A stretch of 64,000 bases of DNA from Qipengyuania oceanensis (GTDB taxonomy: Bacteria > Pseudomonadota > Alphaproteobacteria > Sphingomonadales > Sphingomonadaceae). The notes below the pieces were generated by a model that did no database searches, was not told the DNA's origin, and saw only the letters and a list, made by a program, of their open reading frames with translations. The position numbers and the translations under genes were made by a program. This document shows, in pieces, positions 12,722 to 28,663 of this stretch (positions are counted from its first letter, which is position 1; each line of letters starts with the position of its first letter). The DNA is taken from assembly GCF_009827535.1 (NCBI RefSeq), contig NZ_WTYN01000001.1:1178001-1242000 (forward strand), given 5' to 3'.

Positions 12722-12723
12722 CT

Positions 12724-14437: not shown

Positions 14438-14802
14438 TGGTCGCTTGCCTCATAGACAGCATCGGTGCGGGCCTTGCGGAAAGCGATCTCGGCCGAGCGC
14501 TCGGCACAGGCGAGCTCGATCAGCACCGGGTCAGTGCCGGAGTGGTCGAGGAGGGCCTTGCCGGGGGTGCAGCCCTTCTCGAGGGCGATCTCCCCGGCGC
14601 GCACCATCATCGCGTCCGCGTACTCGGCCGCCTTGTACAGCGGGGCAGCCTCGCCAGCGGCAACCTCGGCTGCGTTCTTGCGGAGCGCGGCAGTGCCACT
14701 CTTCAGGATAACGGCGGTTGCGCCCTTCACGGCGGGCACGTCCACGGTCGAAATCTCGTTCACGGTCATGTCGCGGACGATCATCTTCTTGGGCAGGGTC
14801 AT
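14428..14802 (-). CDS. Small phage-like protein with a protease-prefix-like N-terminus
   Basis: Protein of 124 residues. The first 35 residues, MTVNEISTVDVPAVKGATAV preceded by a basic stretch, recall the xxVxEISxVDxPAxxGA prefix of phage XkdF-like and prohead-protease proteins. The rest is helical and contains TPGKALLDHSGTDP, another pattern seen in small tailed-phage proteins. No protease catalytic residues are present, so it is not an enzyme of that family. It overlaps both neighbours (ATGA upstream). A capsid-related role is a guess from the resemblance. Confidence 0.62.
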   Translation of the reverse strand: MTLPKKMIVRDMTVNEISTVDVPAVKGATAVILKSGTAALRKNAAEVAAGEAAPLYKAAEYADAMMVRAGEIALEKGCTPGKALLDHSGTDPVLIELACAERSAEIAFRKARTDAVYEASDQWT

Positions 14803-15200
14803 TGTGCGGGTTCCTTTTCAGCGGGGAGAGAGGACAGGTCATTATCGACCTGCCGGGCTATCAGGGTGGCGATGGTCTGGGCCTTCGCCCGGGACTGGCG
14901 GGGCTGGTTCAGGTGGCGGAGGAGGTCCGGCGCGGACAACTCGAGCTCGCCCAGCAGCGTACCCCGGAACTGGTGCATCAACCGGGAGGCGGAATGCGCT
15001 TCGGAGCCGTACCGCTCCCGATACGCAGCGAGGAATGCCCGGTCGGCATCGAAGAGGTCATTCATCGCCTCACCGGCGGCCGCGATTGCGGACGAGAAGC
15101 GCTCGGCTGCCTCGACCTTCTCCGCCGCGATCTCGCGCAGGCGGTTGGTGTGTCCGCCGTCCGGCTCCGGCGCGTCAGGCCGCTTGTTCCAAATTCCCAT
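14799..15200 (-). CDS. Hypothetical helical protein of the element
   Basis: Protein of 133 residues, not recognised. It is predicted almost wholly helical, with a charged heptad-like region (RLREIAAEKVEAAERFSSAI) that may form a coiled coil. It has no cysteines and no membrane segment. It overlaps the preceding gene by 26 bp and the following gene by ATGA, typical of phage-style packing. Nothing in it points to an enzyme. Confidence 0.62.
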   Translation of the reverse strand: MGIWNKRPDAPEPDGGHTNRLREIAAEKVEAAERFSSAIAAAGEAMNDLFDADRAFLAAYRERYGSEAHSASRLMHQFRGTLLGELELSAPDLLRHLNQPRQSRAKAQTIATLIARQVDNDLSSLPAEKEPAQ

Positions 15201-15621
15201 TGTCGTCTCCTTCCATTCCGGTGGTGGGGTTGCCCAAGGACGAGCGCAGCGATGCGATCACGTCGCGCGCCTCCTTCGGCTCGAAGCCTGCTTCCTCGAG
15301 CTCGGCCCTTCGGGCGCTCCAGAATTGTTCATCGAATGTGGGCCGCTCGGCCTCGTCCCGGGCCTTCATCAAGACCCAGCGGTCATAGGTGCTGGTGGGC
15401 TCCCGCTCGCCCCGAATCAGCCGGTCCTCATGCCACAGGACGGCCAATTCGGGGGTCGCAGGCGCAGCCTCGCCCATCTCGTACAGGACCGAGATGCGCA
15501 GGGCGCGGCGCTCGGCCGGGGTCATCAGGCGATAGCCCACGGCAAAGGCGAGGTCATCGAGTGCGGTGTCCCGGTCCGCCGGGGCGAGCTCGAGGCGCTT
15601 GCGGGCCTCATCCCGGGTCAT
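15175..15621 (-). CDS. Hypothetical protein downstream of TerS-like gene
   Basis: Protein of 148 residues, not recognised. It is acidic and rich in arginine and glutamate, and probably helical throughout. The start ATG at 15621 lies within the last 14 bp of the TerS-like gene, so the two are translationally linked. Its C-terminus (GMEGDDNGNLEQAA) is probably disordered. A packaging or assembly partner of the TerS-like protein is possible from position only. Confidence 0.62.
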   Translation of the reverse strand: MTRDEARKRLELAPADRDTALDDLAFAVGYRLMTPAERRALRISVLYEMGEAAPATPELAVLWHEDRLIRGEREPTSTYDRWVLMKARDEAERPTFDEQFWSARRAELEEAGFEPKEARDVIASLRSSLGNPTTGMEGDDNGNLEQAA

Positions 15622-16111
15622 GGTCGATCACTCGGGTTGCGGCGGGAAGCTGCGGACGAAGGTTGCTGGCCATCTGCAAGGCGACCTTCGCCACGGCATC
15701 GCCAAGCACTCCCGCATCGAGGCTGTGCGTTACCTGCTTGTTCACAGCGATGGCGTTGGTCTCGCGGTAGTGGGGCAGCATCGCCCGGGCTCGAAGCTCG
15801 AGCAGGCGGTCCGAATACTTGCGGACCGTGCCGACGATCTTTTCCTTGTGGCGGCCGCCGAAGATGGGCTCCTCCCAACCCTCTTGCGCGCGCCGGTAAA
15901 TCTCCGCCTCGATGCTGGCCTCGGCCGCCTCGACCGCTTCCTGCCACTGTGCCGCAAACTCCGGGTCCCGTTCGCGCTCGTCCTTGAAGGTCTGCACCGC
16001 ACCGTACCGGGAAGAGGCGCGCGGGCTGGCGGCCCGGGCAGCGCGCACGAGGATGCCGTGGCGGGACAGCTCGAGGAGGAAGAGGCGCTTGCGGCGGTCG
16101 GTCAGCTTCAT
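15608..16111 (-). CDS. Terminase small subunit-like protein
   Basis: Protein of 167 residues. An N-terminal helix-turn-helix (FLLELSRHGILVRAARAASP) is followed by the pattern of phage small terminases: FKDERERDPEFAAQWQEAVE, then YRRAQEGWEEPIF and GTVRKYSDRLLELRAR. TerS proteins recognise pac or cos DNA and hand it to TerL. No TerL gene is present in the element, so this protein would have to work with a helper phage enzyme, as in SaPI-type satellites. Longer in-frame starts to 16573 run through the GC-rich repeat field and were rejected. It heads the six-gene overlapping run. Confidence 0.8.
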   Translation of the reverse strand: MKLTDRRKRLFLLELSRHGILVRAARAASPRASSRYGAVQTFKDERERDPEFAAQWQEAVEAAEASIEAEIYRRAQEGWEEPIFGGRHKEKIVGTVRKYSDRLLELRARAMLPHYRETNAIAVNKQVTHSLDAGVLGDAVAKVALQMASNLRPQLPAATRVIDHDPG

Positions 16112-16186
16112 GGCGAAACGATAGCTGGCGACCGTTGGCGAGCGAACGGCGGAGCATTGCGCAGAGATGGCTTCGCTACCCCCGGC

Positions 16187-16645
16187 GTACCCCCGCCCCG
16201 CGCTGGTGGCCGGACAGGCACAGGAAACTTGGCGCGGTGGCAATCGAGCTGGCCCTCTAAGAGGGCGGGGTCCGTCCGGCCCCCGGCGATCTCGCGCCCG
16301 CGCGCGCGTGGGGACAACGCAACAAACGGCGGACGGCGGGAGCCCAAGCACGCGCAGCACAAAGGCGTACCCTCCCCGTTCCCCCACCCCGTACCCCCCG
16401 GGGGGAACGCCTTCGCGCCAGCTTTTCCGCCGGTTTCGAGTACCGTACCCCCCGTTCCCCCTCTTTTCGACAAAAGGTAGAAAGAGGGGAGCGGGAGAGG
16501 GCTCCGCCTTGGGCCTGCGTAGGGGGTTATAGGGAAGTGGGGGGTACGCGGGGAACGGGGGGTACGCCTCCACCGAAAGCCCAAGTAAAGCTGGCGAAAT
16601 GCCGTTCCCCCTCTCTCACAGGCGGGCGGGTACGCCGGGGGGAAC
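16187..16645. repeat. GTWCCCC repeat field, candidate replication origin
   Basis: This gene-free stretch of about 540 bp lies between the replication gene and the TerS-like gene. It holds about eleven copies of GTACCCC or GTTCCCC in both orientations, at 16187, 16378, 16391, 16400 (inverted), 16445, 16454, 16539, 16550 and 16557 (inverted), 16604 and 16637 (inverted). 16391-16408 is a near-perfect 18-bp palindrome. A hairpin (CCCCTCTTT at 16458-16466 with AAAGAGGGG at 16481-16489) has a loop containing a smaller inverted repeat CTTTT/AAAAG. Iteron-like repeats beside a primase-helicase gene suggest an origin; this is inference. Confidence 0.6.
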
Positions 16646-16648
16646 GTC

Positions 16649-19033
16649 TCAGTACGGCAGCTCATCGTCGCCATCGTCCAGTTCGGGGCTGGCCGCATCA
16701 TCGACGAAGTACCCAGCGGCCCCGAGCGAGACCTCCAGCGACCTTTCCCGCTGTCGCTTCGAGCCCTTCGCGTATGCTCCGACCGGCTTTCCGCCGAAGC
16801 GTAGCTTGGTCCGCTCCCAGCCCAGCTCTCGCATCGCGTCTCCCACGCGCCCGTTCTGGTCCTGCGTCCGTTGCGAGGGCGGCATCCCGAGGAGGTTCCA
16901 AACATCGGCCGCGCGCAGCTTCCCCGTCCGATCTCCTAACGCGGCGGCCAGTGTCTCGACATGGGGGTCCTCCACCTTCCGCGCTTCCTGTTCTACACCG
17001 GCCGCCGCGTACAGCGATGGATCCAGCCGGATGCTGGCTCCCTCCGCCTCACGCGCGGCGGCCTCGGCCCATATCTGGTCCCGGTCGCGCCGCAGCGCCT
17101 CGAGGTCGAAGCACCCCACGCGGACGGGCCAGAAGCGCCGGTTGCCGGTAAGGTCGCGCAGGTAGCGCTCGCTGTTGGTCGTGCCGATCACAACGAACTG
17201 GCGCGGCACGATCACCGGGAGCCGGGCGTAGGAGAGCCGGGCCGTATCGTCCTGCCGGGAGAGGAAGGCCTTCAGGTGCTCGACCTCGCCCTTGCGCATA
17301 CCCTTCAGCTCGCCAGCTTCGATTATCCACTTGCCGGCGGTCTGCTCGATGGTCTTCTTGCCGTCCGCGTTAAGCGGGAGGTCGTCAGCGAATTGCTCGT
17401 CTCGGCCTGCCAGCACCCGGAGGGCGGAGGACTTATTGGTCCCTTGCTCGCTCTCGAGGATAAGCATCTCGTCGAACTTGCAACCCGGTTGCCGGACGCG
17501 CCGTACGGCAGCGATTAGCGGCAGAGCTCCGACAGCACGGGTATATTCGTTGTCCTCGGCCCCGCCGTAGGTCGAGAGCCATCGGTCGAGCCGGGGCGTT
17601 CCGTCCCACTCCAAACTATCAAGCTCGTCGCAAACCGGATGGAAGGGCGCGTTGCGCGCCGTGTCCATAATCACCTTCGTAAAGAACTCGATTTGCGGCC
17701 GGAAGCGGAAGCGCTCGTCGATCTCGAGCCACAGCCGGGTCAGTGCCGCATCGTCAAGGTGGGGTCCGTGGCCGTCGAGCCCGTCGATCACCGAGCGGTC
17801 CGCGAAGGTATCGTGGCGGAGCTCGACCCCGAGCTTGCGCAGCGCCAACCGGATATTGCCTTGGTGGTTGGCGTAAACCTTGCCGTCCTTGTCGGTGGCG
17901 AAGGTATCAGCAGAGGCGGCGGCCTCCTTCCTCGCCCGTTCGATCTGCCGGGCCGCGTATTCCAGCGACCGCTTTTGCGCCAACGTGTGCGCCGATATGC
18001 CGAAGCCGGGGTCCAGCAGCACGGCCGCTATTGTCTCGTTATCGCAACCGCCCTCGACCATCCCCCGGCAAACGGCGAAGGTGGCCTCGGAACGGGACTT
18101 GTACCTGTCCGGCTCGTCCGGGTCATCGCCTTGCACGATCAACATTCGGATGCGCGGCGTCACTTTCGCCGGGAGCTCGTCTAGGTTGGCGAGAGGGGGC
18201 GGTACGCGGTCGAGCTGTACCTTCGCCTGTCCGGTTGTCGGAGCGGCATCCTTGCGTGGCGCGGCGGTAAACTCGCCCAAGGGATAAACCCTCTTGTCGT
18301 CATACTCGAGAACGGTTGCGAGGCGGGGCTTCCGGCCATCGTCCCGCTTCTTCTTGTTGGGCCAGTTGACGGTGCCCGGAAGGCGCATCAGGCGGCAGCA
18401 ATCGTGGGTTCCATCGACCTTTATCAGCGGACGTGCTTCGGGGTCCTCTTCCCTTTGCCGCTTGAGGTCGTCTTCGATCATCCGGGAGAGGTCCGCTTCG
18501 ATTTGCCGGGTGTAGCATTCTGCCTCCTCGGCAGCGTCCTCGTTGCAGCCGATGTACAGGCCCGGCTCCTCGAGCCGGAAGAAGGCTTGGATGCCACCGC
18601 CGCTGTCGAGGGTTAGCGTGGGCTTGTGCTTGTAGCGCCCGAGAAGGGCGAGCGCTGCCTTTCTGGCTTCGGCCGCGTCCGCTCCATCGGCGGGGTCGAT
18701 ATCAACGTGGAGCCAATCGAGGTTCTCGATGTCTGTCTTCTTGGCCTTCGACGTGATGCGCTCCCGCGTCGGGTTCACGGTCCAGTACAGGTTACGCTCG
18801 GCAGCCGAGTGTTCCTCAAACCAGCCCAGCGCCTCCTCCGCCTCGCCCGGCGCTACCGTCTTGGTGTGCGTCGGTCCGCCGTCCGGTGGAATGGCAGTCA
18901 TCGCCATCAATCCGTTCGGACGAACATCCGCTATAAATTTGAGGGTCTTGTCGAAGAGGGGCTTAAGCAGAGCGGTCTCGTCCTCAACGCTTCGCTCTTC
19001 GCCTCCGGTGGCGGAGACAGTAGGGTCATTCAC
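16649..19033 (-). CDS. AEP primase / VapE-type P-loop replication protein
   Basis: Protein of 794 residues. The N-terminal half is an archaeo-eukaryotic-type primase: acidic motif HVDID at 109-113, SGGG at 144-147, and the RLPGTVNWPN segment at 217-226. The C-terminal half is a VapE helicase-like domain: EWDGTPRLD near 475, Walker A EQGTNKSS at 529-536, Walker B WIIEAGEL at 569-576, then GTTN and GNRRFWPV at 617-637. Such fusions replicate satellites and P4-like elements. The start is a GTG with a GGGAG site upstream. The AlpA-like gene precedes it by 75 bp, and the repeat field follows directly. Confidence 0.9.
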   Translation of the reverse strand: MNDPTVSATGGEERSVEDETALLKPLFDKTLKFIADVRPNGLMAMTAIPPDGGPTHTKTVAPGEAEEALGWFEEHSAAERNLYWTVNPTRERITSKAKKTDIENLDWLHVDIDPADGADAAEARKAALALLGRYKHKPTLTLDSGGGIQAFFRLEEPGLYIGCNEDAAEEAECYTRQIEADLSRMIEDDLKRQREEDPEARPLIKVDGTHDCCRLMRLPGTVNWPNKKKRDDGRKPRLATVLEYDDKRVYPLGEFTAAPRKDAAPTTGQAKVQLDRVPPPLANLDELPAKVTPRIRMLIVQGDDPDEPDRYKSRSEATFAVCRGMVEGGCDNETIAAVLLDPGFGISAHTLAQKRSLEYAARQIERARKEAAASADTFATDKDGKVYANHQGNIRLALRKLGVELRHDTFADRSVIDGLDGHGPHLDDAALTRLWLEIDERFRFRPQIEFFTKVIMDTARNAPFHPVCDELDSLEWDGTPRLDRWLSTYGGAEDNEYTRAVGALPLIAAVRRVRQPGCKFDEMLILESEQGTNKSSALRVLAGRDEQFADDLPLNADGKKTIEQTAGKWIIEAGELKGMRKGEVEHLKAFLSRQDDTARLSYARLPVIVPRQFVVIGTTNSERYLRDLTGNRRFWPVRVGCFDLEALRRDRDQIWAEAAAREAEGASIRLDPSLYAAAGVEQEARKVEDPHVETLAAALGDRTGKLRAADVWNLLGMPPSQRTQDQNGRVGDAMRELGWERTKLRFGGKPVGAYAKGSKRQRERSLEVSLGAAGYFVDDAASPELDDGDDELPY

Positions 19034-19108
19034 GGAAAGTCTCCCTTTCCAAGCCAGGTGATGGTTAGGGCCGTCCGACTTGCGTCTTCAGGCCGGGCGG
19101 CCCGTCAC

Positions 19109-19351
19109 TCAGGCGGCCTCAGCCTCGGCCAGTTTGCCCTCGAGCCAGCCCACGACTTCGGACCGGAGCCACACAACCCTGTTCGGGCCGATGCGCTTCT
19201 GCTTCGGGAACTCGCCCCGCTTCACGAGGTCATAGATCACGGATTGGGAGTAGGTGGTCAGCTCGACCACGCCCTTAATGTCGAGCACGATCTTGTCGGA
19301 GGTCCGACTCACACGCTCGACAGCAGCCTTAAATTCTTCGGTCTGGGCCAT
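19109..19351 (-). CDS. alpA: AlpA-like excisionase/activator
   Basis: Protein of 80 residues. It has a winged helix-turn-helix of the MerR/AlpA type (TYSQSVIYDLVKRGEFPKQ followed by RVVWLRSEVVGWL), which is the signature of AlpA and P4 Vis proteins. These act as excisionases and repressors or activators of integrase in P4-like and PICI elements. The start is the first ATG. The 128-bp gap upstream has no gene and should hold its promoter. The candidate target repeats lie at 21401-21440 in front of the integrase gene; this pairing is inferred. Confidence 0.85.
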   Translation of the reverse strand: MAQTEEFKAAVERVSRTSDKIVLDIKGVVELTTYSQSVIYDLVKRGEFPKQKRIGPNRVVWLRSEVVGWLEGKLAEAEAA

Positions 19352-19479
19352 CGCCTTCGTCCTTCGATTGGGCCGCTTCCGGGCCGGTACGAAGGCTTCC
19401 TAACTGGCGGACACGCAGTGAGTCGGTCGGAACATACTCGGCCAAAAACTGCCGCTCTCGCCCCTACGGCAACGATGGC

Positions 19480-20052
19480 TCAACGGTACTCTGCGGGAAC
19501 GTCTCGCAGCTTGCGCAATTGCGTCTCGACTTGCGTAATCGCCCGGCGAAGGCGCTGCGCCGGGTCCCGCGTCTCGCCCCCGGTCTCGGGGAAAAGGGCG
19601 AGGACGTGCTTCCCGATAAAATCGAGCATCGGGTGCATGGCGCGGCCCTCCTCTTCGGAGCGGTAGGCGTTGCCCCCGGTCTGGTTGCCGCGCGCTTCCC
19701 AAATCCCACGCAACTCCTTCACGGCCTCGTACAGCCCCGGGACCATCGGCGCGCGGCGATAGGCGATTAGCTCAAGCCGTTCGCGGATTGCCTCCTCGAA
19801 GGCACCGTACCGGATCACCTGTGCGTCGAGCTTGTGGCCGACATCGTCGAGGACGGTCTCGCGGACCTCCTCTGGCAGTGCCTCCCAGACGCGCAAGAGC
19901 TTCTCGAGACCCGGGGCAAGCTCCGCCCGGTCGCGTTCCTGCATGGCCGGAATTTCAGCGTCCATCAAAGTGCCGTGCGCGATTGCGGCGCGAACTCGTC
20001 CTGCCTCCTGCTCGGTCAGCGGCTCCGGCGTCAGCTCCACAGCTTGCCCCAC
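19480..20052 (-). CDS. Hypothetical protein coupled to integrase
   Basis: Protein of 190 residues, not recognised. It is helical and acidic in its first half, with several arginine-rich helices later (RRAITQVETQLRKLRD). No transmembrane segment or known motif. The start is a GTG at 20052, giving a 22-bp overlap with the integrase 3' end, so it is probably translated from the same message. An accessory recombination or regulatory protein is possible but unproven. The 128 bp after it, up to the AlpA gene, appear non-coding. Confidence 0.62.
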   Translation of the reverse strand: MGQAVELTPEPLTEQEAGRVRAAIAHGTLMDAEIPAMQERDRAELAPGLEKLLRVWEALPEEVRETVLDDVGHKLDAQVIRYGAFEEAIRERLELIAYRRAPMVPGLYEAVKELRGIWEARGNQTGGNAYRSEEEGRAMHPMLDFIGKHVLALFPETGGETRDPAQRLRRAITQVETQLRKLRDVPAEYR

Positions 20053-21350
20053 TTCTCGAGGGCGGCCCGCTTTTCGGGCAAGTAGCTGTGGTGGTTATAT
20101 ACCCCGGCAATACCGGGTATCTTGTGGCCGAGGACCCGCTCGACGTGCTCCTCCCGAATGCCCAACCCGATCATATGCGTGGTCACCGAATGTCGCAGGT
20201 CGTGGATGCGCCACGGAGCCATAGGCGGGAGCTCCTCTCTCTCGGCCCTCTTGGCAATCTTCTTGTCGAGCGAGGTCTTGGCCTTCGAGAAACCGCTAAT
20301 CGCGGCTCGGCCGCCGGAGCCGGAGAGGAGGAACTCGCCCTCATTCCACCGGGGCAGACCCTCCACAATCTTCCACGCCGGGGCGGAGAGCGGGACTGCG
20401 TGGGCAATACCGTTCTTCGCCTTGTCGGCCGGAAGCACATAGAGGCGATCCTTGTCCGGCCCCAACCAGCCACGCTCTAGCTGGGCAATCTCCGAGCGGC
20501 GCTGCCCAGTCAGGATTAGCAGGCGCACCCAATCACCGAAGGGGTAGCCCAACTCACCGGCGGCGTCCCAGACGCGCCGGAGCTCGTCCATCGACAGGCA
20601 CCGCTTGCTCGCTTCGTACCGGAGGTCCTTGCGCTTTATCCCGGCCGCCGGACTAATATCGACCAAGCCTCGGTCGAGTGCCCAGCTAAACAGGCCCACG
20701 AGGTGCTTGCGGACCTCCCGGGCGATGCTAGTGCCTTTATCCATCACAATATCGTCGAGCAGCTCGACTACCTCTGTGCGGCGGATGCTCTCAATCAGCC
20801 GCCCCCGCCACTTGGGCTCCACGAGGTCTGTCAGCAATCGCTCGGCCGGACAGAGGCCAACCTTGCGCGGCTTCTTCCCCGTCTCCTCTGCCTCCTTCCG
20901 GGCGAGCTCCTCCCGCTCCTTCGCGCGCTGCCCGTCTCGGGTGCTTACCTTCACGTGCAATTCGACGTACCGCTCGAGGACAACCTCGAAGGTGCGCGTC
21001 TGGCGATGGTCAATCTCCTTCGCCCGGACAACCGCCGGGTCGATGCCCTTGTCTGCGGCCTCGAGGGCCTCCCGCGCCCTATCCCGGGCATCGCTCAGGG
21101 ACACGGTCGGATAGACCCCGAGGTTCATCCGCTTCATCTTCCCGCGCGACCCGTCCGCGTGGGCGACACGGTACAGCATCGACCAGCTCTTCTTGCCGCT
21201 CTTGCCCACTCGAACACGAAGCTCCCGGACGAGGGCATCCGCGATCTCGAGGCGGCCGCCGGGCGGCGCGACCAGCTTCTCGAGCCTCTTGTCGGTAAGC
21301 CGTTCGCGGCCCCTCTGCTCCTCGACTTTCTCTTCCATCACCGTCGCCAT
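20031..21350 (-). CDS. int: P4-type tyrosine integrase
   Basis: Site-specific recombinase of 439 residues. The N-terminal DUF4102-type arm-binding domain (LTDKRLEKLVAPPGGRLEI) precedes the core-binding and catalytic domains. Catalytic residues are R284 or R285 in TGQRRSE, HDLRH at 383-387, the GH of VLGHK at 408-409, and the nucleophile Y418 in VYNHH. The ATG at 21350 with GGAGGGAG upstream was preferred over an in-frame start at 21512, which would read through the att repeat. It lies 153 bp inside the right-hand repeat, as expected of an integrase that uses a tRNA 3' end. Confidence 0.95.
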   Translation of the reverse strand: MATVMEEKVEEQRGRERLTDKRLEKLVAPPGGRLEIADALVRELRVRVGKSGKKSWSMLYRVAHADGSRGKMKRMNLGVYPTVSLSDARDRAREALEAADKGIDPAVVRAKEIDHRQTRTFEVVLERYVELHVKVSTRDGQRAKEREELARKEAEETGKKPRKVGLCPAERLLTDLVEPKWRGRLIESIRRTEVVELLDDIVMDKGTSIAREVRKHLVGLFSWALDRGLVDISPAAGIKRKDLRYEASKRCLSMDELRRVWDAAGELGYPFGDWVRLLILTGQRRSEIAQLERGWLGPDKDRLYVLPADKAKNGIAHAVPLSAPAWKIVEGLPRWNEGEFLLSGSGGRAAISGFSKAKTSLDKKIAKRAEREELPPMAPWRIHDLRHSVTTHMIGLGIREEHVERVLGHKIPGIAGVYNHHSYLPEKRAALEKWGKLWS

Positions 21351-21361
21351 ACCACGTTTCT

Positions 21362-21385
21362 CCCTCCGGGGTAGCCTAGGGGTAG
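21362..21385 (+). repeat. Putative integrase arm-type site, right end
   Basis: Second copy of the 24-bp block seen at 11407-11430 (CCCTCCGGGGTA, variable 4 bp, AGGGGTAG), 21 of 24 positions identical. It lies just upstream of the integrase start. A further GGGGTAG stands at 21494-21500, touching attR. Confidence 0.55.
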
Positions 21386-21400
21386 CGAAACACCCCGGCT

Positions 21401-21440
21401 TCGGCAGGTCCCTATCGGACCGCCTCGGAAGGTCGCTATC
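21401..21440 (+). promoter_or_regulatory. Tandem 16-bp repeats upstream of int, candidate AlpA/Xis sites
   Basis: Two copies of TCGGMAGGTCSCTATC at 21401-21416 and 21425-21440, with 14 of 16 bases identical and start-to-start spacing of 24 bp, which places them roughly on one face of the helix. They stand between the arm-type site and attR, where excisionase sites would be expected. Role inferred. Confidence 0.45.
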
Positions 21441-21503
21441 CTCAAGTGCCCGTAAAATCGAGGGTTTTTTCGTGAGACAGTAACCGGCCGGAAGGGGTAG
21501 CTT

Positions 21504-21559
21504 ACCCTTCACACGGGTGGGGTCGCAAGTTCAATCCTTGCCGCGCCCACCATCTTTTC
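21504..21559 (+). repeat. attR: 56-bp direct repeat of tRNA-Val 3' end
   Basis: Perfect copy of 11308-11363. It contains only the anticodon 3' half, TψC arm and CCA, without a 5' acceptor strand, so it is not a functional tRNA gene. It marks the right edge of the element. Confidence 0.95.
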
Positions 21560-21624: not shown

Positions 21625-22314
21625 TCAGCGAAACACCTTCCAGACATGCGCGAAGATCAACGCCTCGCTCAGCATCTCTCCGCCGTCCTCGATGATGTCG
21701 AAAGCCTGGAAGCACCAATGAAATGCGAACGCTTCGCACACCGGCTCGTGCAGAAAATCGATCCCGACTGCGAATAAGGCCAACATCACAATGAGTGCCG
21801 CGAGGAGGAACAGTGACGGCCACTTCGCAACGGGCGTGAAGATCACGCCGGCGATCCCCCAGGGGAGCAGGAACAGCGCGATCGTTATCCAGATCACCAG
21901 CTCGCCGGCATCCTTGCTCTCCGGCCCCAGCCGCGAGACAAGATCGACCTCACGCGCGACCACCGCGCCGAGGTTTTCATGGATCATGAGGCTGTCGTCG
22001 AGCATCACGGTCGCCAGCACCACCGCGAATGTCAGGCACAGGACCACGCCTTCGCGCCTGTATGCCCGCCACATCATCAGCGCCGCACCCGCCATGAGGA
22101 TATAGCCGAACCATTCGGCGAGGCTGCCATCATGGGCGATGTTCAATGCCGCGGGAATCTTTTCCAGCAGTGCGCCGCTGATCACATGCGCGGCGACGAA
22201 GCCCGCCTCGACTAGCAGGATGATCGCGAGAATCTTCTGATCGAACTGGCGCGGCAACCAGAGTTGCGACCGCCATCGAGCACCGACCCGAACGGCCGAC
22301 GTATCCGCGATCAC
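21625..22314 (-). CDS. Polytopic membrane protein, last gene of glycan operon
   Basis: Protein of 229 residues, not recognised by name. It has about six hydrophobic segments, among them ILAIILLVEAGFVAAHVI near residue 30 and VIWITIALFLLPWGIAGVIF near residue 135. Conserved-looking polar residues (DDSLMIHEN) sit between the third and fourth segments. The start is a GTG overlapping the preceding stop as GTGA, so it is coupled to the adenylation-acyltransferase gene. Its position suggests an inner-membrane accessory to the acyl or glycan transfer reaction; no enzyme motif was seen. It ends 65 bp from attR. Confidence 0.72.
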   Translation of the reverse strand: MIADTSAVRVGARWRSQLWLPRQFDQKILAIILLVEAGFVAAHVISGALLEKIPAALNIAHDGSLAEWFGYILMAGAALMMWRAYRREGVVLCLTFAVVLATVMLDDSLMIHENLGAVVAREVDLVSRLGPESKDAGELVIWITIALFLLPWGIAGVIFTPVAKWPSLFLLAALIVMLALFAVGIDFLHEPVCEAFAFHWCFQAFDIIEDGGEMLSEALIFAHVWKVFR

Positions 22315-24791
22315 CTGACCGACCCCCTCGATACCGGCTCGGCGACCGGGCCGAAGCCGCTGCGTCTCGGCCGGCCTGGAGGCCGCAAGGCCTGCGGCGC
22401 TGCAGATCGCAGGAGACTGGCTCGCCTCATCGCCTCGTAGACCAGCAGGCAGCCGCCGAAGGCGAGAACGAAAGTCAGCAGGCTGAACGACCGCCCGAAC
22501 AGCTTGTCGCTCACCAGCATGACGGACCATGCCAGCACGCCATTGAGGGCGAAGATCGTGAAAGTGGCCGAAGAAACGTACTGCACCGCCGGGCGCAGTA
22601 ATCGCGGGACGCTGATCATCGGCACGAACAGCGTCGCGACGAGGCCCACCCCGATCCAGCCGGTCGTCCGCGAGACACCGCCATCGACCAGCGCGAAAGC
22701 GACTCCCAGGCCGAGCGCGAGCAGCTTGCGCGGCTGCGTGTCGGCGGCGTAGCAACACCAGCCGAGCCACAGAAGCGCGAGATAGCGTTGGGGCACGAGA
22801 TTGCGCAGGTGATCCGTATTCCACGCGATCTGGGCAGCCCACCACACGAGGACTAGTGCAGCCGTGGTGCCGAAGGCGAAAGCCCATGGCGATCGCTTCG
22901 CCCATTGCCGCGCCGCCGGTATCGCGAACAGCAGGCCGGTCAGCACGAGGCACTGGACCAGAACCTGGACGAACCAGAACGGGAAGATCTGCGTCAGCCG
23001 CAACTCGGTGAGATTTGTGTAGAGGAGCAGCGTGTCGAGCTGGAATTCGCCCCTGTAGATCATGAAGACCGCAGCGAGCAGGAAGTATGGGATGACCAGG
23101 GTCCGGGCATAATTGGCCAGCGAGCCGAAGATCCTGCCCTCGCGCAAGGCCGGCGCCTTGAACCGGGCGAGATTGTAGCCGATCAGGAAGAACAGCAGGA
23201 AAGTCCCGCCTCTCACCAGGCTGATCCCCGAATGCGTGGCGACGACACAAGTGATCGCAAGCGCCCGCAAGACGATCCCCGTCTCCATCGTGGCTGGCGC
23301 ACGCGTCGGGCCGTCGGCGAACTCGGCCAGTTTGCCGAGCGGCATGACATCCCAGTTTGCGGGCAGCGAACCGAGGCGGCTCTCGAGCGCAATCGACATC
23401 TCGACGTAGTTGAGGGAGTCGCCGCCGAGATCCTGGAAGCTGGCCTCGTCCGGCACGCTATCGCGGCGAAACGTCTGCGCGAAGAGCGAGCGGATGCCGT
23501 CGTCAGTTCTGGTCTCCCGCTCGCGCGAGTGTTCCTGAGGCGCGTAAAGCTCGCTCAGCTGGCGGCGCTGGACCTTGCCGGTTGCCGTCCTGGGAATCCG
23601 GTCGACGACTTGCAGTTTGAGCGAGGAGCCGGGCGAAATACCGCGGCGTGTCAGCATATCGCGCAACGCATCCTCGACCGCGTCCTGCTCGCCGGCCACT
23701 TCGTGCGACAGGGCCACGAAAATGCCATCGCCGCGCCGGTCGTCGGCGATGCGGGAGATCGCGATCCCGCCGTCCAGGGCGAGCGCCTGCATCACCTGCG
23801 TTTCTAGCAAGGCCGGGTCGAGCTTCACGCCGCCGGTGTTGATGACATCGTCTGCCCGGCCATCGTAAACCAGCATGCCTCGGTGGAAATGACCGTTATC
23901 GTTTGTGGTCAGCCAGCCTTCACCGTCGGTCATCGGTTCGATTTGCCCTGCGCGAAGAACGCCCATGGCCAGATTCGGGCCGCGGATCTGGATGCGGCCC
24001 TGCTCACCGATACGGATTTCCACCGCTCCGTAAGGCTGACCGACCGATTCCAGCGCTTCACCTTCGCAATCGCTGACGACGAGGAAGGTCGAGCGCGAGG
24101 CTTCGGTGAGGCCGTAGTGCTGGACGATGCGGGCATTGGGGAACAGCGCCTTCAACTGCTCCTTCTCGGAGCGGTTCATGTACTGGCTGCCGATTTCCAG
24201 CCAGCGGAGCGAGGCACCGTGACCCTGCAGGACACCGGGCTGCGCAATCAGCAGGCGCAGGAGGCTGGGCACCGCCGACAAGGCGTTGATCGATCCGGCA
24301 GCCAGCATGTCGCGGATTTGCAGCGGGTCGAACCCGTTTTGCGGAATGTAGAACCTGCCGCCTGCTGCAGCGACCGCGCGGCATCGGCCCAGGCCGAAGG
24401 AAAAGCCGACCGGCACGCCGACATATTCGCGGATGGTTTCGTCGACGCGCATGATGGCGTTGAGCCGCTCGACCGTATCGGCCAGCGCGGCATGGGAGAT
24501 CACGATCGGCTTGGGCTCTCCTTCCGTGCCCGAGGTGAATACGATCTGGGCCGGCTCGTCTTCGCTTCGCAGGGCAAGACTGCCTTCGGACCAGCCGGCA
24601 CCTGCTTCGGGCTCCAGGATCGGCCCGCGATTATAACCGGCGATCGAGGGAAGCGCGGCCTCATCGTCCAGCACCGCGAACAGCTGGCCCTTCGAGCAGG
24701 CCTCGAATACGGCGCGTACGAAGGCCGGCGAATTGCACTTGCGGATGCCGATGATGGTCGGGCGGTGCTCGCCGCCATCCGAGCCAGTCAT
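22311..24791 (-). CDS. Fused adenylation enzyme, acyl carrier and membrane acyltransferase
   Basis: Protein of 826 residues in three parts. Residues about 80-410 are an AMP-forming ligase: FTSGTEGEPKP at 85-95, QHYGLTEAS at 224-232, YDGRADDVINTGG at 309-321, and the catalytic lysine in PRTATGKVQRR at 400-410. Residues about 430-495 are a carrier domain with phosphopantetheine site GGDSL at 456-460. Residues about 505-826 are a polytopic acyltransferase-3-like domain (RALAITCVVATHSG). The ligase lacks the usual N-terminal region of about 100 residues. The layout suggests that an acid is activated, loaded on the carrier and transferred across or at the membrane to a glycan, like DltA-DltC-DltB in one chain. 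The start overlaps the previous stop (ATGA). Confidence 0.85.
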   Translation of the reverse strand: MTGSDGGEHRPTIIGIRKCNSPAFVRAVFEACSKGQLFAVLDDEAALPSIAGYNRGPILEPEAGAGWSEGSLALRSEDEPAQIVFTSGTEGEPKPIVISHAALADTVERLNAIMRVDETIREYVGVPVGFSFGLGRCRAVAAAGGRFYIPQNGFDPLQIRDMLAAGSINALSAVPSLLRLLIAQPGVLQGHGASLRWLEIGSQYMNRSEKEQLKALFPNARIVQHYGLTEASRSTFLVVSDCEGEALESVGQPYGAVEIRIGEQGRIQIRGPNLAMGVLRAGQIEPMTDGEGWLTTNDNGHFHRGMLVYDGRADDVINTGGVKLDPALLETQVMQALALDGGIAISRIADDRRGDGIFVALSHEVAGEQDAVEDALRDMLTRRGISPGSSLKLQVVDRIPRTATGKVQRRQLSELYAPQEHSRERETRTDDGIRSLFAQTFRRDSVPDEASFQDLGGDSLNYVEMSIALESRLGSLPANWDVMPLGKLAEFADGPTRAPATMETGIVLRALAITCVVATHSGISLVRGGTFLLFFLIGYNLARFKAPALREGRIFGSLANYARTLVIPYFLLAAVFMIYRGEFQLDTLLLYTNLTELRLTQIFPFWFVQVLVQCLVLTGLLFAIPAARQWAKRSPWAFAFGTTAALVLVWWAAQIAWNTDHLRNLVPQRYLALLWLGWCCYAADTQPRKLLALGLGVAFALVDGGVSRTTGWIGVGLVATLFVPMISVPRLLRPAVQYVSSATFTIFALNGVLAWSVMLVSDKLFGRSFSLLTFVLAFGGCLLVYEAMRRASLLRSAAPQALRPPGRPRRSGFGPVAEPVSRGSVR

Positions 24792-26002
24792 GTCCACCGC
24801 TCCCGCACGTGGAAAAATCGGTGCTTGGCGCTCTTGAGGATCGGCCGGTTCACGACCTGGGAGGGAAATCTGCGGCGCAGGAATGTCTCGAAGGCTCCCA
24901 GCGGGCGATACACGTAGGACTTGCGCAGGATCGTCCGGAGGGCCTCCACGCTTTCCTGCCGATCGTTCGCCAGCGCGTCCTCGAGCAGTTCGTGGAAGAC
25001 CGGAAATTCGTTCGGGTTGTGCAACCGGATGCGCGCGATCGCCCGCGCACTGTATTGCGACCAATCGAAGCTCGGCGCGTCCTCGGGCGCGACCCCGGAA
25101 AGGTCGAGCGCCATCATGGTCCTGAGGCACTTCTTGCAGCGGGAGCAATTGACGCGGCGTCCTTTCACGCCCGGCTCCTGGCCACACACGTCAAGCCCGG
25201 CGAGCAATGCGGGATCGCCGGCAAGATGCTGGATCTTTTCCAGTCGGCTGAACTGCGTTCCGAAATGATGGAATTGCAGCTCGTGCGACGACAGCAGGGG
25301 ATCGGTCAGGGGGTGCGAGCCCCACGGGATCAGCTTGCCGTAAGTCTGCGACGATGAGAACGTGACGTGCTCCAGCCCGCCGGACAGCAGATGCGCGATC
25401 GAGCCGAGTGCCGGCCCGTGCGTGCGATAGGCCCAGGCGTCGGCGAATTCGGGAAAGGCGCGCAGGACATTCGTGCCGACGGGAAGCACTGGCTTGCCGT
25501 GCGCGAATTTCGGCTCATTCGCGAGCTGATCGACCAAATGGGTCTCGTCGTCCCAGTCGAATATCGCCTTGATGAGGATGTCCGTACGCTCGTCTTCGCT
25601 CGAGAGCGTGAAGGTCGAATCCACTCCTCCGGTATAGAACAGGCCCCGGTGCGAAGCGCTTGCATCGTCCTTCCCGCCCGTTTCGTCGAGGACCGGGACG
25701 TCGATCTCGATGCAGCGCGCTCCGGGATACCATTCGGCCCATTGCCGGATGAGGCAATCGAGATTGCGCTTGAGAACACGCGGTGCCGGGATGTCCTGCG
25801 AATAGCTCTCGCCGAAGATCGCTGCCGATGTTGCACCCAGCACCAGCCAGTGGTCGGCGCGATCCGACAACCAGTGCCGGTAGGCATGCGGCACGACGAA
25901 AAGGAAGCGCAGCTCCCGACCGTTCCGGCTCTGGAACCATGCCTGGTGGCGCTCGAACGGCCCGCGATATTCTCGCTCGATTTCGGTCCTAACAAGTCGC
26001 AT
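24788..26002 (-). CDS. PP-loop ATPase (QueC-like fold) in glycan operon
   Basis: Protein of 404 residues. A PP-loop pyrophosphatase motif TGGVDST stands at 124-130, and a CxxCxxC cluster (NCSRCKKCLRT) lies near residue 290, resembling the zinc site of 7-cyano-7-deazaguanine synthases. The family adenylates a carbonyl or carboxylate and replaces the AMP with a nucleophile. The substrate here is unknown. Operon position between a glycosyltransferase and an adenylation/acyltransferase fusion points to making or activating an unusual sugar or acyl group, not to tRNA modification. The start at 26002 lies 14 bp inside the upstream gene. Confidence 0.78.
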   Translation of the reverse strand: MRLVRTEIEREYRGPFERHQAWFQSRNGRELRFLFVVPHAYRHWLSDRADHWLVLGATSAAIFGESYSQDIPAPRVLKRNLDCLIRQWAEWYPGARCIEIDVPVLDETGGKDDASASHRGLFYTGGVDSTFTLSSEDERTDILIKAIFDWDDETHLVDQLANEPKFAHGKPVLPVGTNVLRAFPEFADAWAYRTHGPALGSIAHLLSGGLEHVTFSSSQTYGKLIPWGSHPLTDPLLSSHELQFHHFGTQFSRLEKIQHLAGDPALLAGLDVCGQEPGVKGRRVNCSRCKKCLRTMMALDLSGVAPEDAPSFDWSQYSARAIARIRLHNPNEFPVFHELLEDALANDRQESVEALRTILRKSYVYRPLGAFETFLRRRFPSQVVNRPILKSAKHRFFHVRERWT

Positions 26003-27338
26003 TGCGCACTTCTCTCGCAGTTCGCCGCGCATCGTGCAGCCGCGCCGGCGAGGTTTGCGAACCCTGTTTGCCTCGGCAATCTCGTGCAGGCTCGTCGTAC
26101 AGCGCGACCAGCCGCCGCTTCCCGCCTTCCAGAAGAGCCTGGTAACTTTCGATCAGGCGATCGATCCATGCATCCGCGGTCATCGCGATGCCGCGCGTTC
26201 CCTCGAAGGCATTGATGCTCATTCCCCGGACGAGCGCGTCCTTTTGCGCCCAGATGGAGAGTATCCTTGCGAACTCGTCGATGTCGGTCGGGTCGATCCC
26301 CCTTCCCGCACCGGCAGTTTCGATCTCGTCCAGCAACAGTGCGTTTTCGGAACAGAGCACCGGGAGGCCGCTCCACAGTGCTTCGACCGCCGTCAGGCCG
26401 AAGGGTTCGATCGCTATGCTGGGCATCAGCTGTACGCGCGCGCGCGAAGCATAGTGCCCGATTTCCGATGGGGGCTTCCAACCGACCCAGTCGTGCTCGG
26501 GATAGCTCTCGGCGAGTTCGGCAAGCAGCGATCCGGTCCCGACCGCGATCAACCTTACGCCGGCCTGTCGGCATGCCTCGGCCGCCTGGGCGATCCCCTT
26601 GGTCGGCTCGATGCGACCCACGAACAGGGCGGACGAGTTTTTCTCCGCTTCGACGCGCTCGCTGCAATAGGGCGAGACCGGGTTGGGCAGGACAGCCATG
26701 TCCGCATCCTCGATCCCGCCCATCGCGAGATAGCGGCGCATGCCTTCGTGGATCAGCAGGACAGGCGGAAACCGGTCGAACATCGGGCGCGTGCGGGCGA
26801 GCACCGAGTGACGTGCCACGCGCCAGCCCTTCTGCAGGCGATTGCGCCTGTCGCAGTCGCGCATCAGGCACCGCGTACCGAGCGGCTGGAGTTCGCAGCG
26901 CTGCTGCTGGCGGAAGTCGAACATCGCGCCGTTCGGGCACGTGACGAAGAAATCATGCGCGCTGAGCACCAGGCGGTCGGCTACCTTGCGTAAGGGTACG
27001 AAGATCGACGGCGAGAGAATCTGCGCCCAGCCGTGCAAATGGTAGACCATGCCCTCGTGGTCGTTCTGCGCGATCCAGGCGGCGAGCATGTCCCGCGCCG
27101 CCCGGTTGTACAGACCCCTGAGCACGCTGGACGAAAAGCCGGCCGCCACCAGCCTTTTCTGCTGCAGCGAGACCACTTCGATCCCCGCAGCGCCGAGGAG
27201 ATCGCTGTCCGATCCGCCGGCGATAAAGGTCACCGCATGGCCGCGACGGGCAAAGGCCAGTGCGGATTCCACCGCGAGTTTCGATGCTCCGCCCATCGGC
27301 TCGGCGAGATCGTTGATGACGACAATGTGGGGTTTCAT
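25989..27338 (-). CDS. Glycosyltransferase family 4
   Basis: Retaining GT-B glycosyltransferase of 449 residues. The N-terminal domain begins HIVVINDLAEPMGGASKLAV with the glycine-rich acceptor loop. The C-terminal domain shows ALFVGRIEPTKGI, the nucleotide-sugar binding EPFGLTAVEALWSGLPVL (EX7E motif) and the end helix. A cysteine-rich insert (CELQPLGTRCLMRDC) in the middle is of the kind seen in GT4 enzymes acting on surface polysaccharides. It is cytosolic or membrane-associated. The start is fixed by an ATGA overlap with the pyruvyltransferase gene. Donor and acceptor sugars cannot be read. Confidence 0.88.
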   Translation of the reverse strand: MKPHIVVINDLAEPMGGASKLAVESALAFARRGHAVTFIAGGSDSDLLGAAGIEVVSLQQKRLVAAGFSSSVLRGLYNRAARDMLAAWIAQNDHEGMVYHLHGWAQILSPSIFVPLRKVADRLVLSAHDFFVTCPNGAMFDFRQQQRCELQPLGTRCLMRDCDRRNRLQKGWRVARHSVLARTRPMFDRFPPVLLIHEGMRRYLAMGGIEDADMAVLPNPVSPYCSERVEAEKNSSALFVGRIEPTKGIAQAAEACRQAGVRLIAVGTGSLLAELAESYPEHDWVGWKPPSEIGHYASRARVQLMPSIAIEPFGLTAVEALWSGLPVLCSENALLLDEIETAGAGRGIDPTDIDEFARILSIWAQKDALVRGMSINAFEGTRGIAMTADAWIDRLIESYQALLEGGKRRLVALYDEPARDCRGKQGSQTSPARLHDARRTAREVRNATC

Positions 27339-28663
27339 GCCGGCACCGCATGATCGATCGCAAGCACGGCGAGGTCGGCAATCGAAGCGCGACATTCCGC
27401 CTGCAGCACGTCGAGGTCCTCGCGCTGCGGTGGCTCGTTGATCGCGTTAAGCACGGCCTCGGCGACATCGCCTGGATCGTGCATCGCCGGATCGAGCAGG
27501 TATTGCGCGCGGCCAATGGTGTCGAAGAAACCCTGGAGCTTCGCATCCCAGGCCAGACCGACCGCCGGCAGCCCGTAGGAATGGGCGATGATGCACGCGT
27601 GAAGCCGATGCGCCACGACCGAGCGAAGCGAACCGATGAACCGGGCAAGATCGCGAGGCCTGGTGAAGCGCGGCGCACGCGTGACACCGGCATAAGGCAT
27701 CAGCTGCTGGCAGAGTTCGTCGAGGAAACGCTCGTCCTCCTGGCTGCCGTTGGTGAACAGCACGAGTTCCTGGCCGGCGGCGCTCAGCCTTTCGACGAGC
27801 TGCTCCATCCATACAGCATCGCAACGATCGCTGCCGGGCGCGCCGTGCAGGCGCAGGACTTCGGGCGCGGTTACGCAGATACCGATGCGATCCCTAAAAC
27901 CGCCTGCCACGTGGCGTCCGTAGACTTTTTCCGCGAGCAACCCGGGATCATAGGCAAGCTCGGGGCTGCTCGTGCCTGCCACGCGCGCGAAGGTCGCGTT
28001 CCAGTTGCCGATCGAGAGGCGATCGCGCAGGGTGATGGACAGCGGCTCGGCGTAGCCGATCGCCTCGCGCATCCGCTCGCCGCCGGCATTTGACCAATGC
28101 GCCCCGACACCCAGGCTCGCAAGGGCAACCGGCAGGCTCCGCTCCTTTGCCAGTCCCAGCGCCGCAGCGACCTTGATCGGGAAGTTCTGGTCGCGGTCCG
28201 CGAGCAAATTCCCGCCTCCCAGGATGACCATGCGCGCCGGCACCAGTTGCTCCCGCCATCGAGGCCGCAGCCTTAAACGCACCACTGCCCCCAGCATCAT
28301 TGGCACGAGCAGTCGGCGAAAGGCGGGTGGCAGGGATTCGATCAGGCGGATCAGGCCCCGCCGGTTGCGGCCATTGCCCGCGTGGTGGTCGAGCCGGCCA
28401 GCAAGATCGATGGAATAGGGACGCAGTCGGGGATCGGCCTCGATCAGCGCGTGTTCGAGGCAGTCGGCGATGACCCCATCGCCGAGATTCGGACTGAACT
28501 TGACGTTGAAGACGGCCACGGGAATTTCTTCTGTCGCGGCATCGGGAGATGCTTCTCCCCCCTGCTCGTCGATGTCCCACCCGGTTTCGCTTGTGAAAGA
28601 GTGATCTATCACGCGATCCAATCTCTGGTCCCCTTCCTCGGCACGTCCGATTTGCACCGCCAT
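27335..28663 (-). CDS. Polysaccharide pyruvyl transferase family protein
   Basis: Protein of 442 residues of the PS_pyruv_trans family (CsaB/WcaK type), which adds ketal-linked pyruvate from PEP to sugars. Family features are KFSPNLGDGVIADCLEHAL near residue 55, LGGGNLLADRDQNFP in the middle and the C-terminal SVVAHRLHACIIAHSYGLP (RLHxxI/VxxxxxGxP). The first 45 residues are polar and probably disordered. It is the first gene of the five-gene operon, and the next gene overlaps it by 4 bp. Whether it transfers pyruvate or a related group is not known. Confidence 0.85.
   Translation of the reverse strand: MAVQIGRAEEGDQRLDRVIDHSFTSETGWDIDEQGGEASPDAATEEIPVAVFNVKFSPNLGDGVIADCLEHALIEADPRLRPYSIDLAGRLDHHAGNGRNRRGLIRLIESLPPAFRRLLVPMMLGAVVRLRLRPRWREQLVPARMVILGGGNLLADRDQNFPIKVAAALGLAKERSLPVALASLGVGAHWSNAGGERMREAIGYAEPLSITLRDRLSIGNWNATFARVAGTSSPELAYDPGLLAEKVYGRHVAGGFRDRIGICVTAPEVLRLHGAPGSDRCDAVWMEQLVERLSAAGQELVLFTNGSQEDERFLDELCQQLMPYAGVTRAPRFTRPRDLARFIGSLRSVVAHRLHACIIAHSYGLPAVGLAWDAKLQGFFDTIGRAQYLLDPAMHDPGDVAEAVLNAINEPPQREDLDVLQAECRASIADLAVLAIDHAVPA

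What the first reader, a model, noticed from the sequence alone, without database searches (positions are those of the whole stretch)
22311..24791. Adenylation, carrier and membrane acyltransferase domains in one 826-residue protein
Seen: intact AMP-ligase motifs with the catalytic lysine, a GGDSL carrier site and a polytopic acyltransferase-3-like end. Known: Dlt systems use separate DltA, DltC and DltB to put D-alanine on wall polymers. Inferred: a single-chain analogue that activates an acid and moves it to an extracellular glycan. The ligase also lacks about 100 N-terminal residues usual in the family.
Basis: partly seen in the sequence, partly recalled or inferred. Interest (0 to 1): 0.7.

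Follow-up and report, generated by a model that had tools for sequence, protein, structure and literature searches.

The report
Self-loading membrane acyltransferase (three-domain protein)
One bacterial protein appears to activate a small acid, hold it on a built-in swinging arm and pass it through its own membrane domain, probably to decorate the bacterium's sugar coat; related membrane enzymes are thought to take such groups from coenzyme A instead, so this may be a different way of feeding that reaction.

Summary
On the minus strand, 22311-24791, one 826-residue frame carries an adenylation domain (Lys406), a carrier domain (GGDSL, Ser459) and a predicted ten-helix acyltransferase-3 (AT3/TmAT) domain. 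It is not a chance fusion: 46 aligned relatives in Pseudomonadota and Cyanobacteriota share the layout, and 23 more share the adenylation-carrier part with another, mostly AT3-like, end. The short N-terminus is a trait of the family. The membrane domain keeps the R-X10-H motif (47 of 47) and its model matches human HGSNAT (Z 14.7). It lacks the in-register TMH3 RxxR motif (0 of 47; 15 of 17 distinct control AT3s have it) that simulations place on the 3'-phosphate of CoA. Best reading: the acyl group reaches the membrane domain on the fused phosphopantetheine arm, not on CoA, for transfer to an exopolysaccharide. The substrate is probably not an alpha-amino acid, so it works like a one-chain Dlt pathway but is not Dlt. 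Substrate, acceptor and activity are unproven. My searches of the held papers found no description of this layout. New variant of a known kind.

The parts
22311..24791 (-). A-T-AT3 fusion gene, 826 aa
23538..24764 (-). shortened adenylation (ANL) domain, about residues 10-418; motif A3 84-95, A5 223-233, Lys406
   Evidence: Pfam; VIA-align Z about 28 to ANL enzymes; invariant residues
23316..23498 (-). carrier (PP-binding) domain, about residues 432-492; GGDSL with Ser459
22395..23309 (-). AT3/TmAT membrane domain, residues 495-799 as modelled; ten long helices predicted, Arg509-X10-His520
24788..26032 (-). upstream gene, 414 aa, PP-loop-like by eye (GGVDST, CxxCxxC); 4-nt overlap with the fusion gene
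   Evidence: no Pfam, NCBIfam, PADLOC or PDB sequence match
25989..27395 (-). glycosyltransferase group 1, overlapping the upstream gene
27335..28663 (-). polysaccharide pyruvyl transferase, upstream-most gene of the overlapping minus-strand set
21625..22320 (-). downstream membrane-protein frame (by eye), no family match (start uncertain)

Best explanation
A self-loading membrane acyltransferase. (1) The cytosolic adenylation domain activates a small carboxylic acid, probably not an alpha-amino acid, as acyl-AMP (inferred from intact motifs and fold). (2) The acyl group moves to the phosphopantetheine arm on Ser459 of the fused carrier (inferred; the one PPTase match in the genome is of AcpS size). 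(3) The arm enters the pore of the AT3/TmAT domain from the cytosol and places the thioester near His520, in place of acyl-CoA (inferred from the retained R-X10-H and the loss of the RxxR motif assigned to CoA's 3'-phosphate). (4) The acyl group is passed to an extracytoplasmic acceptor, most likely the exopolysaccharide of this locus (inferred from context). Shown here: the domains, motifs, predicted fold, family-wide conservation and locus. Not shown: substrate, acceptor, any activity. The confidence given is for steps 1-3; step 4 is judged in the second rival.
For: Three domains in one frame. 46 relatives with the same layout; Pfam AMP-binding 47/47, PP-binding 47/47, Acyl_transf_3 46/47. 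AF2 models: whole chain pLDDT 87.9; AT3 part pLDDT 92.9, pTM 0.91, ten long helices. A domain matches ANL enzymes at Z about 28. AT3 part matches HGSNAT at Z 14.7 over 271 of 305 residues and GWT1 at Z 10.7 and 9.6; the next row is 4.7. R-X10-H 47/47; RxxR..P 0/47 against 17 of 19 control AT3 rows (15 of 17 distinct frames) from related genomes; also 0 of 6 type 3 rows tested and none in the 21 type 2 rows the script could anchor. [quoted passage not shown] Exopolysaccharide locus around the gene. PPTase-family gene next to or one gene from type 2 genes in 5 of 29 loci (two members checked, L076 and L086). An A-T frame overlapping an AT3 frame in L154, among glycosyltransferase-like frames by eye.
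Against: No biochemistry exists here. The AT3 review says acyl-CoA rather than ACP is the donor of characterised AT3s (PMC9558356, passages). The role of RxxR comes from simulation, and invariant Arg543 could take over CoA binding; a looser search for any [RK]xx[RK] in the TMH3 region finds one in 13 of 47 rows, the window among them (REGR), though none in register before the conserved Pro. The window's AT3 alone scores just under Pfam's cut-off, Foldseek E-values for HGSNAT are weak (0.27 or worse), and the tool warns that helical models can reach Z about 14 by arrangement alone. The window has Thr and Phe where the family consensus has the TMH9 SxxxY. Several relatives of the window's type are not in obvious glycan loci. 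Whether the AcpS-type enzyme modifies this carrier is unknown.
Confidence: 0.68

Rival explanations
1. The A-T part makes acyl-CoA or an acyl-carrier for general use, and the AT3 domain still takes ordinary acyl-CoA; the fusion only brings them together.
For: The best PDB sequence matches of the A domain are acyl-CoA ligases. Characterised AT3s use acyl-CoA (PMC9558356, passages). Arg543 is invariant and could replace RxxR; a loose [RK]xx[RK] occurs in 13 of 47 rows.
Against: A carrier is present and its Ser invariant in 70 of 70 rows. RxxR before the Pro is absent in 47 of 47 and present in 15 of 17 distinct control AT3s, and not found in the other fusion types.
Confidence: 0.15
2. The acceptor is not a polysaccharide but a lipid, a small metabolite or a peptide, and the locus position is incidental. 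This concerns step 4 only and does not exclude steps 1-3.
For: Several relatives of the window's type stand outside glycan loci. The nearest, Solirhodobacter L025, has FemAB-like genes and an autoinducer-synthase-like gene close by, and a PKS-like frame (by eye) lies near the Hydrogenophaga gene in L053. Known AT3s also acylate macrolides (PMC9558356, passages).
Against: In the window the gene sits in an overlapping minus-strand set with a glycosyltransferase and a pyruvyl transferase. Glycosyltransferases are the commonest neighbours of the sister genes. L053, L059, L034 and L070 have EPS-type neighbours, by eye and by NCBIfam matches under the curated cut-offs.
Confidence: 0.25
3. A one-chain Dlt-type system that puts D-alanine or another amino acid on a wall or EPS polymer.
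For: Same order of chemistry (adenylation, carrier, membrane transfer); DltA is among the structure matches (3e7w, Z 27.7).
Against: The A4 motif is SFG with no Asp in 70 of 70 rows, so the usual alpha-amino contact (recalled) is missing. DltA NCBIfam model 66.7 bits against cut-off 476. The membrane part is TmAT-like, not MBOAT.
Confidence: 0.08
4. A non-functional chance fusion or decayed gene.
For: The Pfam AT3 score of the window alone is marginal.
Against: Frame open over 826 codons, catalytic residues kept, 46 aligned relatives with the same layout in two phyla.
Confidence: 0.01

Closest known systems
AT3 / TmAT membrane acyltransferases (PF01757; OafB, OatA, ExoH; fold relatives HGSNAT, GWT1)
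   Same: predicted ten-helix fold, R-X10-H in TMH1, broken helix 9, Pfam match in 46 of 47 rows
   Different: fused behind an adenylation and a carrier domain; no in-register TMH3 RxxR; the held papers name SGNH, racemase and NRF-type fusions, and unspecified ones in eukaryotes (passages)
Dlt pathway (DltA, DltC, DltB)
   Same: acid activated by an adenylating enzyme, held on a carrier, moved across the membrane to a surface polymer (recalled for Dlt; inferred here)
   Different: one chain; different membrane family (AT3 not MBOAT); A domain lacks amino-acid features
AlmE/AlmF/AlmG glycine system of Vibrio cholerae (recalled, no call)
   Same: adenylation, carrier, envelope transferase logic
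   Different: separate proteins, glycine on lipid A, different transferase family
Exosortase-associated acyl-CoA ligase TIGR03098
   Same: ANL enzyme named for exosortase A systems; matches P0001 at 95.1 bits
   Different: cut-off 592.35 not reached; that model describes a ligase only

Membership tests
AT3 / TmAT superfamily (PF01757 clan) | ten-helix TmAT fold | tested here: met
   predicted: ten long helices, pLDDT 92.9; HGSNAT Z 14.7, rmsd 4.5, 271 aligned; GWT1 Z 10.7; next row 4.7. Foldseek E 0.27 at best
AT3 / TmAT superfamily (PF01757 clan) | R-X10-H in TMH1 | tested here: met
   47 of 47 rows
AT3 / TmAT superfamily (PF01757 clan) | TMH3 RXXR (highly but not universally conserved in AT3) | tested here: not met
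   0 of 47 before the Pro, against 17 of 19 control rows, 15 of 17 distinct; loose out-of-register matches in 13 of 47. Filed therefore as a divergent TmAT branch, not a typical AT3
AT3 / TmAT superfamily (PF01757 clan) | Pfam gathering score | tested here: inconclusive
   28.2 against 31 alone; 31.8 with neighbours in the frame; 46 of 47 rows match at E 0.1 or better, best 3.1e-28
ANL adenylating enzymes | A3 TSG-T-G loop, A5 YGLTE, GRxDD, C-terminal Lys | tested here: met
NRPS amino-acid adenylation domain | Asp of motif A4 that binds the alpha-amino group (recalled) | tested here: not met
   S-F-G in 70 of 70 rows, no Asp at or next to the site
Carrier (PP-binding) domain | Ser in GGDSL, Pfam score | tested here: met
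   24.1 bits over 20.8; Ser in 70 of 70
Carrier (PP-binding) domain | actual phosphopantetheinylation | not testable with these tools
   one PF01648 match, in a 145-aa frame, in the genome
Dlt system | DltA ligase model | tested here: not met
   66.7 bits, cut-off 476
Dlt system | MBOAT DltB | tested here: not met
   Pfam gives Acyl_transf_3 and no MBOAT at E 0.1; the clear fold matches are HGSNAT and GWT1

The most novel reading that the evidence does not exclude
A widespread class of transmembrane acyltransferases uses a carrier-tethered phosphopantetheine arm, not acyl-CoA, as the donor threaded through the membrane pore. One adenylation module with an invariant pocket (one common, non-amino-acid substrate) has been joined repeatedly to different TmAT-like domains, so that the same acyl group is put on different surface glycans in several phyla; a substrate without a ready CoA pool, such as glycerate, would fit.
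Probability: 0.4. Interest if true: 0.8.

Novelty: new variant of a known kind. Interest (0 to 1): 0.62.

Why it matters
The held AT3 review takes acyl-CoA as the donor and says so against ACP (PMC9558356, passages). A carrier fused in cis, with loss of the motif assigned to CoA's 3'-phosphate, makes the opposite case directly testable with two point mutants (S459A, H520A). It also points to a dedicated acid, perhaps not drawn from the CoA pool, on surface polymers of bacteria as far apart as Novosphingobium, cyanobacteria, Methylophaga and Chlorobium, and offers a single-gene handle on polysaccharide properties.

Tried and rejected
Dlt membership: rejected. A truncated gene as the cause of the short N-terminus: rejected; even from the first possible start no type 1 row has more than 149 residues before A3. 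The A3 positions printed were measured on ranges that I had trimmed to the window's start, so I do not use them. Whole-model search of PDB: the A domain filled the list, so the AT3 part was modelled alone. The viral fold library gave one match of note, an unnamed 637-aa viral protein (E 0.014, probability 1.00), not followed. The upstream PP-loop-like gene as a conserved partner: found in 3 of 59 genomes, the window's own included; among 155 fetched loci tblastn finds it only in the window, its own-genome copies and those two others, whose surroundings are unrelated by eye. The protein blast gave no line, not even the window's copy, probably because my frame caller had dropped that frame; one search replaces it. 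A GDSL lipase hit in one type 2 row was not followed; it may be the carrier's own GDSL letters. Glycerate: the paper search gave 0 papers, so it is only a guess. The oxalyl-CoA synthetase search gave no pocket paper; pocket roles (Ser202 facing Ser289, Arg233 facing His319 of the plant enzyme, by the alignment) rest on recall. The promoter scan found none. PADLOC: no match.

The type 1/type 2 labels come from how far the window's protein aligns, so L101, labelled type 2, carries a strong Pfam AT3. Four of six type 3 rows were skipped in the tree, and L110 was not tested. Control AT3s: 20 of 30 loci gave a frame, 19 with R-X10-H, three of them the same frame; the profile that picked them was built from 13 of these loci. 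Two type 2 rows (L077, L097) had no anchor, L095 was anchored wrongly and L002 has Lys for Arg. The neighbour censuses used 111 of 132 chosen frames for type 1 (25 loci) and 105 of 111 for type 2 (20 loci).
Full report
What is there. The gene runs on the minus strand from ATG at 24791 to a stop at 22311 and encodes 826 residues. Its start overlaps the stop of the upstream gene by 4 nt; that gene overlaps a glycosyltransferase, which overlaps a polysaccharide pyruvyl transferase (starts as listed): a tightly packed minus-strand set. Around it lie a GH16 hydrolase, a cell-wall hydrolase, a GT2 and a Wzx-like flippase by Pfam, and frames that by eye are a Wza-like export protein, a sugar-phosphate transferase, a Wzc-like kinase and another glycosyltransferase. 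This is an exopolysaccharide locus.

Domains. Pfam finds AMP-binding (73-277), PP-binding (432-475) and, just under its own cut-off, Acyl_transf_3 (507-785); the genome search puts the last just over the cut-off, at 31.8 bits with its neighbours in the frame. The AlphaFold2 model of the whole chain has mean pLDDT 87.9. Its adenylation part aligns with ANL enzymes at Z about 28: McbA, malonyl-CoA synthetases, MenE, 4-coumarate and oxalyl-CoA ligases, DltA. The membrane part, modelled alone, has pLDDT 92.9 and pTM 0.91 with ten long helices, the ninth broken. It aligns with human HGSNAT at Z 14.7 over 271 of 305 residues and with GWT1 at 10.7 and 9.6, while the next row is 4.7. The tool warns that mostly helical models can reach about 14 by arrangement alone; I rely on the gap, the coverage and the agreement with Pfam. 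Foldseek itself puts four HGSNAT entries first, at weak E-values of 0.27 to 0.98. HGSNAT, GWT1 and AT3 have been united in one superfamily, TmAT (PMC12423673, abstract and passages).

The short N-terminus. Motif A3 sits at residues 84-95; in oxalyl-CoA ligase it is near 166. Model residues 5-11 align with chain residues about 41-57 in most single-enzyme structures listed, so roughly 40-45 residues are missing at the front and the rest is internal. If each relative's frame is read from its first possible start, the residues before A3 number 100 or fewer in 33 of 46 type 1 rows, 125 or fewer in 42, and 149 at most; in type 2, 100 or fewer in 19 of the 22 rows with the motif, of 23. The fold is otherwise complete, so this is a compact ANL variant and not damage.

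Relatives. Among 98 genomes (own, family and order) the close whole-length match is found only in the window's own. Among the matches listed, four more genomes hold related fusions: G003 and G051 (alike in the A-T part), G030 and G049 (weaker, over A, T and AT3; the G030 copy has two in-frame TAG). One scan of GTDB genomes found 148 relatives, of which 80 were kept. Pfam at E 0.1: A4 47/47 AMP-binding, 47/47 PP-binding, 46/47 Acyl_transf_3; A5 23/23, 23/23 and 7/23. Type 1 rows come from Pseudomonadota and Cyanobacteriota; type 2 rows also from Chlorobiota, Planctomycetota, Myxococcota and Thermodesulfobacteriota. A third kind (type 3), with other adenylation domains before a similar carrier-AT3 unit, was found in 5 genomes besides the window's among 385 of the class (one of these at only 1.7e-7) and in G030 and G049.

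One module, several membrane ends. In the adenylation-domain tree the short A domains of types 1 and 2 form one group (100/100) apart from the two type 3 rows used. The type 1 label needs 7 changes on the tree, 5 of them forced by well supported branches (type 2: 6 and 4). The same A-T module thus seems to have been paired several times with different membrane ends. Some of these changes may be divergence beyond what BLAST could see rather than true exchange, since the labels rest on alignment reach. In L154 (G029) an A-T frame of 610 residues and an AT3 frame of 391 residues overlap as two genes among glycosyltransferase-like frames; this may be a split system or a recent frame break.

Catalytic residues. 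Invariant in 47 of 47: Lys406 (A10), Ser459 (carrier), Arg509 and His520 (R-X10-H), Arg543. [quoted passage not shown] I looked for R-x-x-[RK] followed within 1-3 residues by Pro in the TMH3 region: 0 of 47 type 1 rows, against 17 of 19 control AT3 rows from related genomes (15 of 17 distinct frames); 0 of 6 type 3 rows tested, and none in the 21 type 2 rows the script could anchor, one of them anchored wrongly. A looser [RK]xx[RK] anywhere in that region occurs in 13 of 47 type 1 rows, the window's REGR among them, but not in register. Carrier-fused AT3 domains thus keep the catalytic part and lack the part assigned to the nucleotide end of CoA; a phosphopantetheine arm on a carrier has no such end. 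This is my main ground for saying that the donor is the fused carrier. It is an inference: Arg543 may do the work of RxxR, and the window departs from the TMH9 SxxxY consensus (Thr and Phe).

Substrate. The A4 motif is SFG-x-[GA]-R, with no Asp in 70 of 70 rows, so the usual contact for an alpha-amino group (recalled) is missing. Ser202 and Arg233 are invariant and stand where, in the alignment, oxalyl-CoA ligase has Ser289 and His319, which I recall as oxalate contacts. With Arg136 they suggest a small acid with a second polar or negative group. That the 70 rows share these residues suggests one common substrate. Glycerate, known on gellan (recalled), would fit because it has no ready CoA pool, but I could not test it and one paper search gave nothing. 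Type 3 row L005 has an HDP motif, as in amino-acid A domains, so other fusions may use amino acids.

Loading. The genome has one PPTase match, in a 145-residue frame of AcpS size, and four PP-binding matches including this one. AcpS modifies DltC (recalled), so loading is plausible. In 5 of 29 type 2 loci a PPTase-family gene lies next to or one gene from the fusion, four of them Chlorobiaceae (members confirmed in L076, and L086).

Context in relatives. Among 105 neighbour proteins of 20 type 2 loci the commonest families are glycosyltransferases (GT2 in 13, GT1 in 12), and examples lie in exosortase clusters (XrtD in L082; a PrsT-like protein just under its cut-off in L088). Among 111 neighbours of 25 type 1 loci the commonest are Wzy_C (6) and Acyl_transf_3 (5), but the rest is mixed and several genes look solitary by eye. 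L053, L059, L034 and L070 have EPS-type neighbours, by eye and by NCBIfam matches that stay under the curated cut-offs. So a glycan acceptor is likely for the window and for type 2, less sure for type 1 at large.

Known or new. The AT3 papers list stand-alone, SGNH, racemase and NRF-type forms (PMC9833829, PMC9558356, PMC12423673; passages only), and PMC9558356 argues for acyl-CoA and against ACP as donor. Full-text searches for the layout listed no paper that describes it by title or abstract start. Of the two listed papers holding all three Pfam names, both seen in passages, neither describes the fusion there. Most subscription journals and all bioRxiv preprints are outside the library, and such proteins are in databases, named for instance 'AMP-binding protein' on a Paracoccus plasmid. 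I rate it a new variant of a known kind: known domains, in an arrangement and with a likely donor route that I could not find described.

Noticed in passing
window 24788-26032 (-): 414-aa protein with a PP-loop-like GGVDST motif and a CxxCxxC cluster, reminiscent of QueC by eye; no Pfam, NCBIfam, PADLOC or PDB match; relatives of 32-34% identity in two genomes of the order.
   Followed up: partly
window about 11564-21512: By eye an integrated element next to the EPS locus: integrase-like frame 20031-21512 (-), primase/helicase-like frame 16649-19033 (-), DNA cytosine methyltransferase-like frame 12598-13932 (+), near a tRNA-Val at 11282-11356.
   Followed up: no
window 21625-22320 (-): Membrane-protein frame (by eye) directly downstream of the fusion gene with no family match.
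   Followed up: no
L154 7917-10740 (-): A-T and AT3 on two overlapping frames among glycosyltransferase-like frames: a split counterpart or a recent frame break.
   Followed up: partly
L002 484-4284 (+): TauD-family dioxygenase gene just before an A-T-T fusion with an AT3-like end; it might hydroxylate the carried acyl group (SyrP-like role recalled).
   Followed up: partly
L098 9986-13189 (+): Type 2 fusion of 1068 aa with three PP-binding stretches.
   Followed up: no
L031 1157-6495 (+): Parabeggiatoa contig with what by eye looks like two fusion genes in tandem (864 and 815 aa).
   Followed up: no
L005 1459-4287 (-): Type 3 fusion with a full-length NRPS-like A domain (HDP at motif A4) beside a CrtI-like frame (by eye): may load an amino acid.
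   Followed up: partly
L053 1924-6654 (-): PKS-like frame of 1576 aa (by eye) near the type 1 gene in a Hydrogenophaga locus with XrtA-type neighbours.
   Followed up: no
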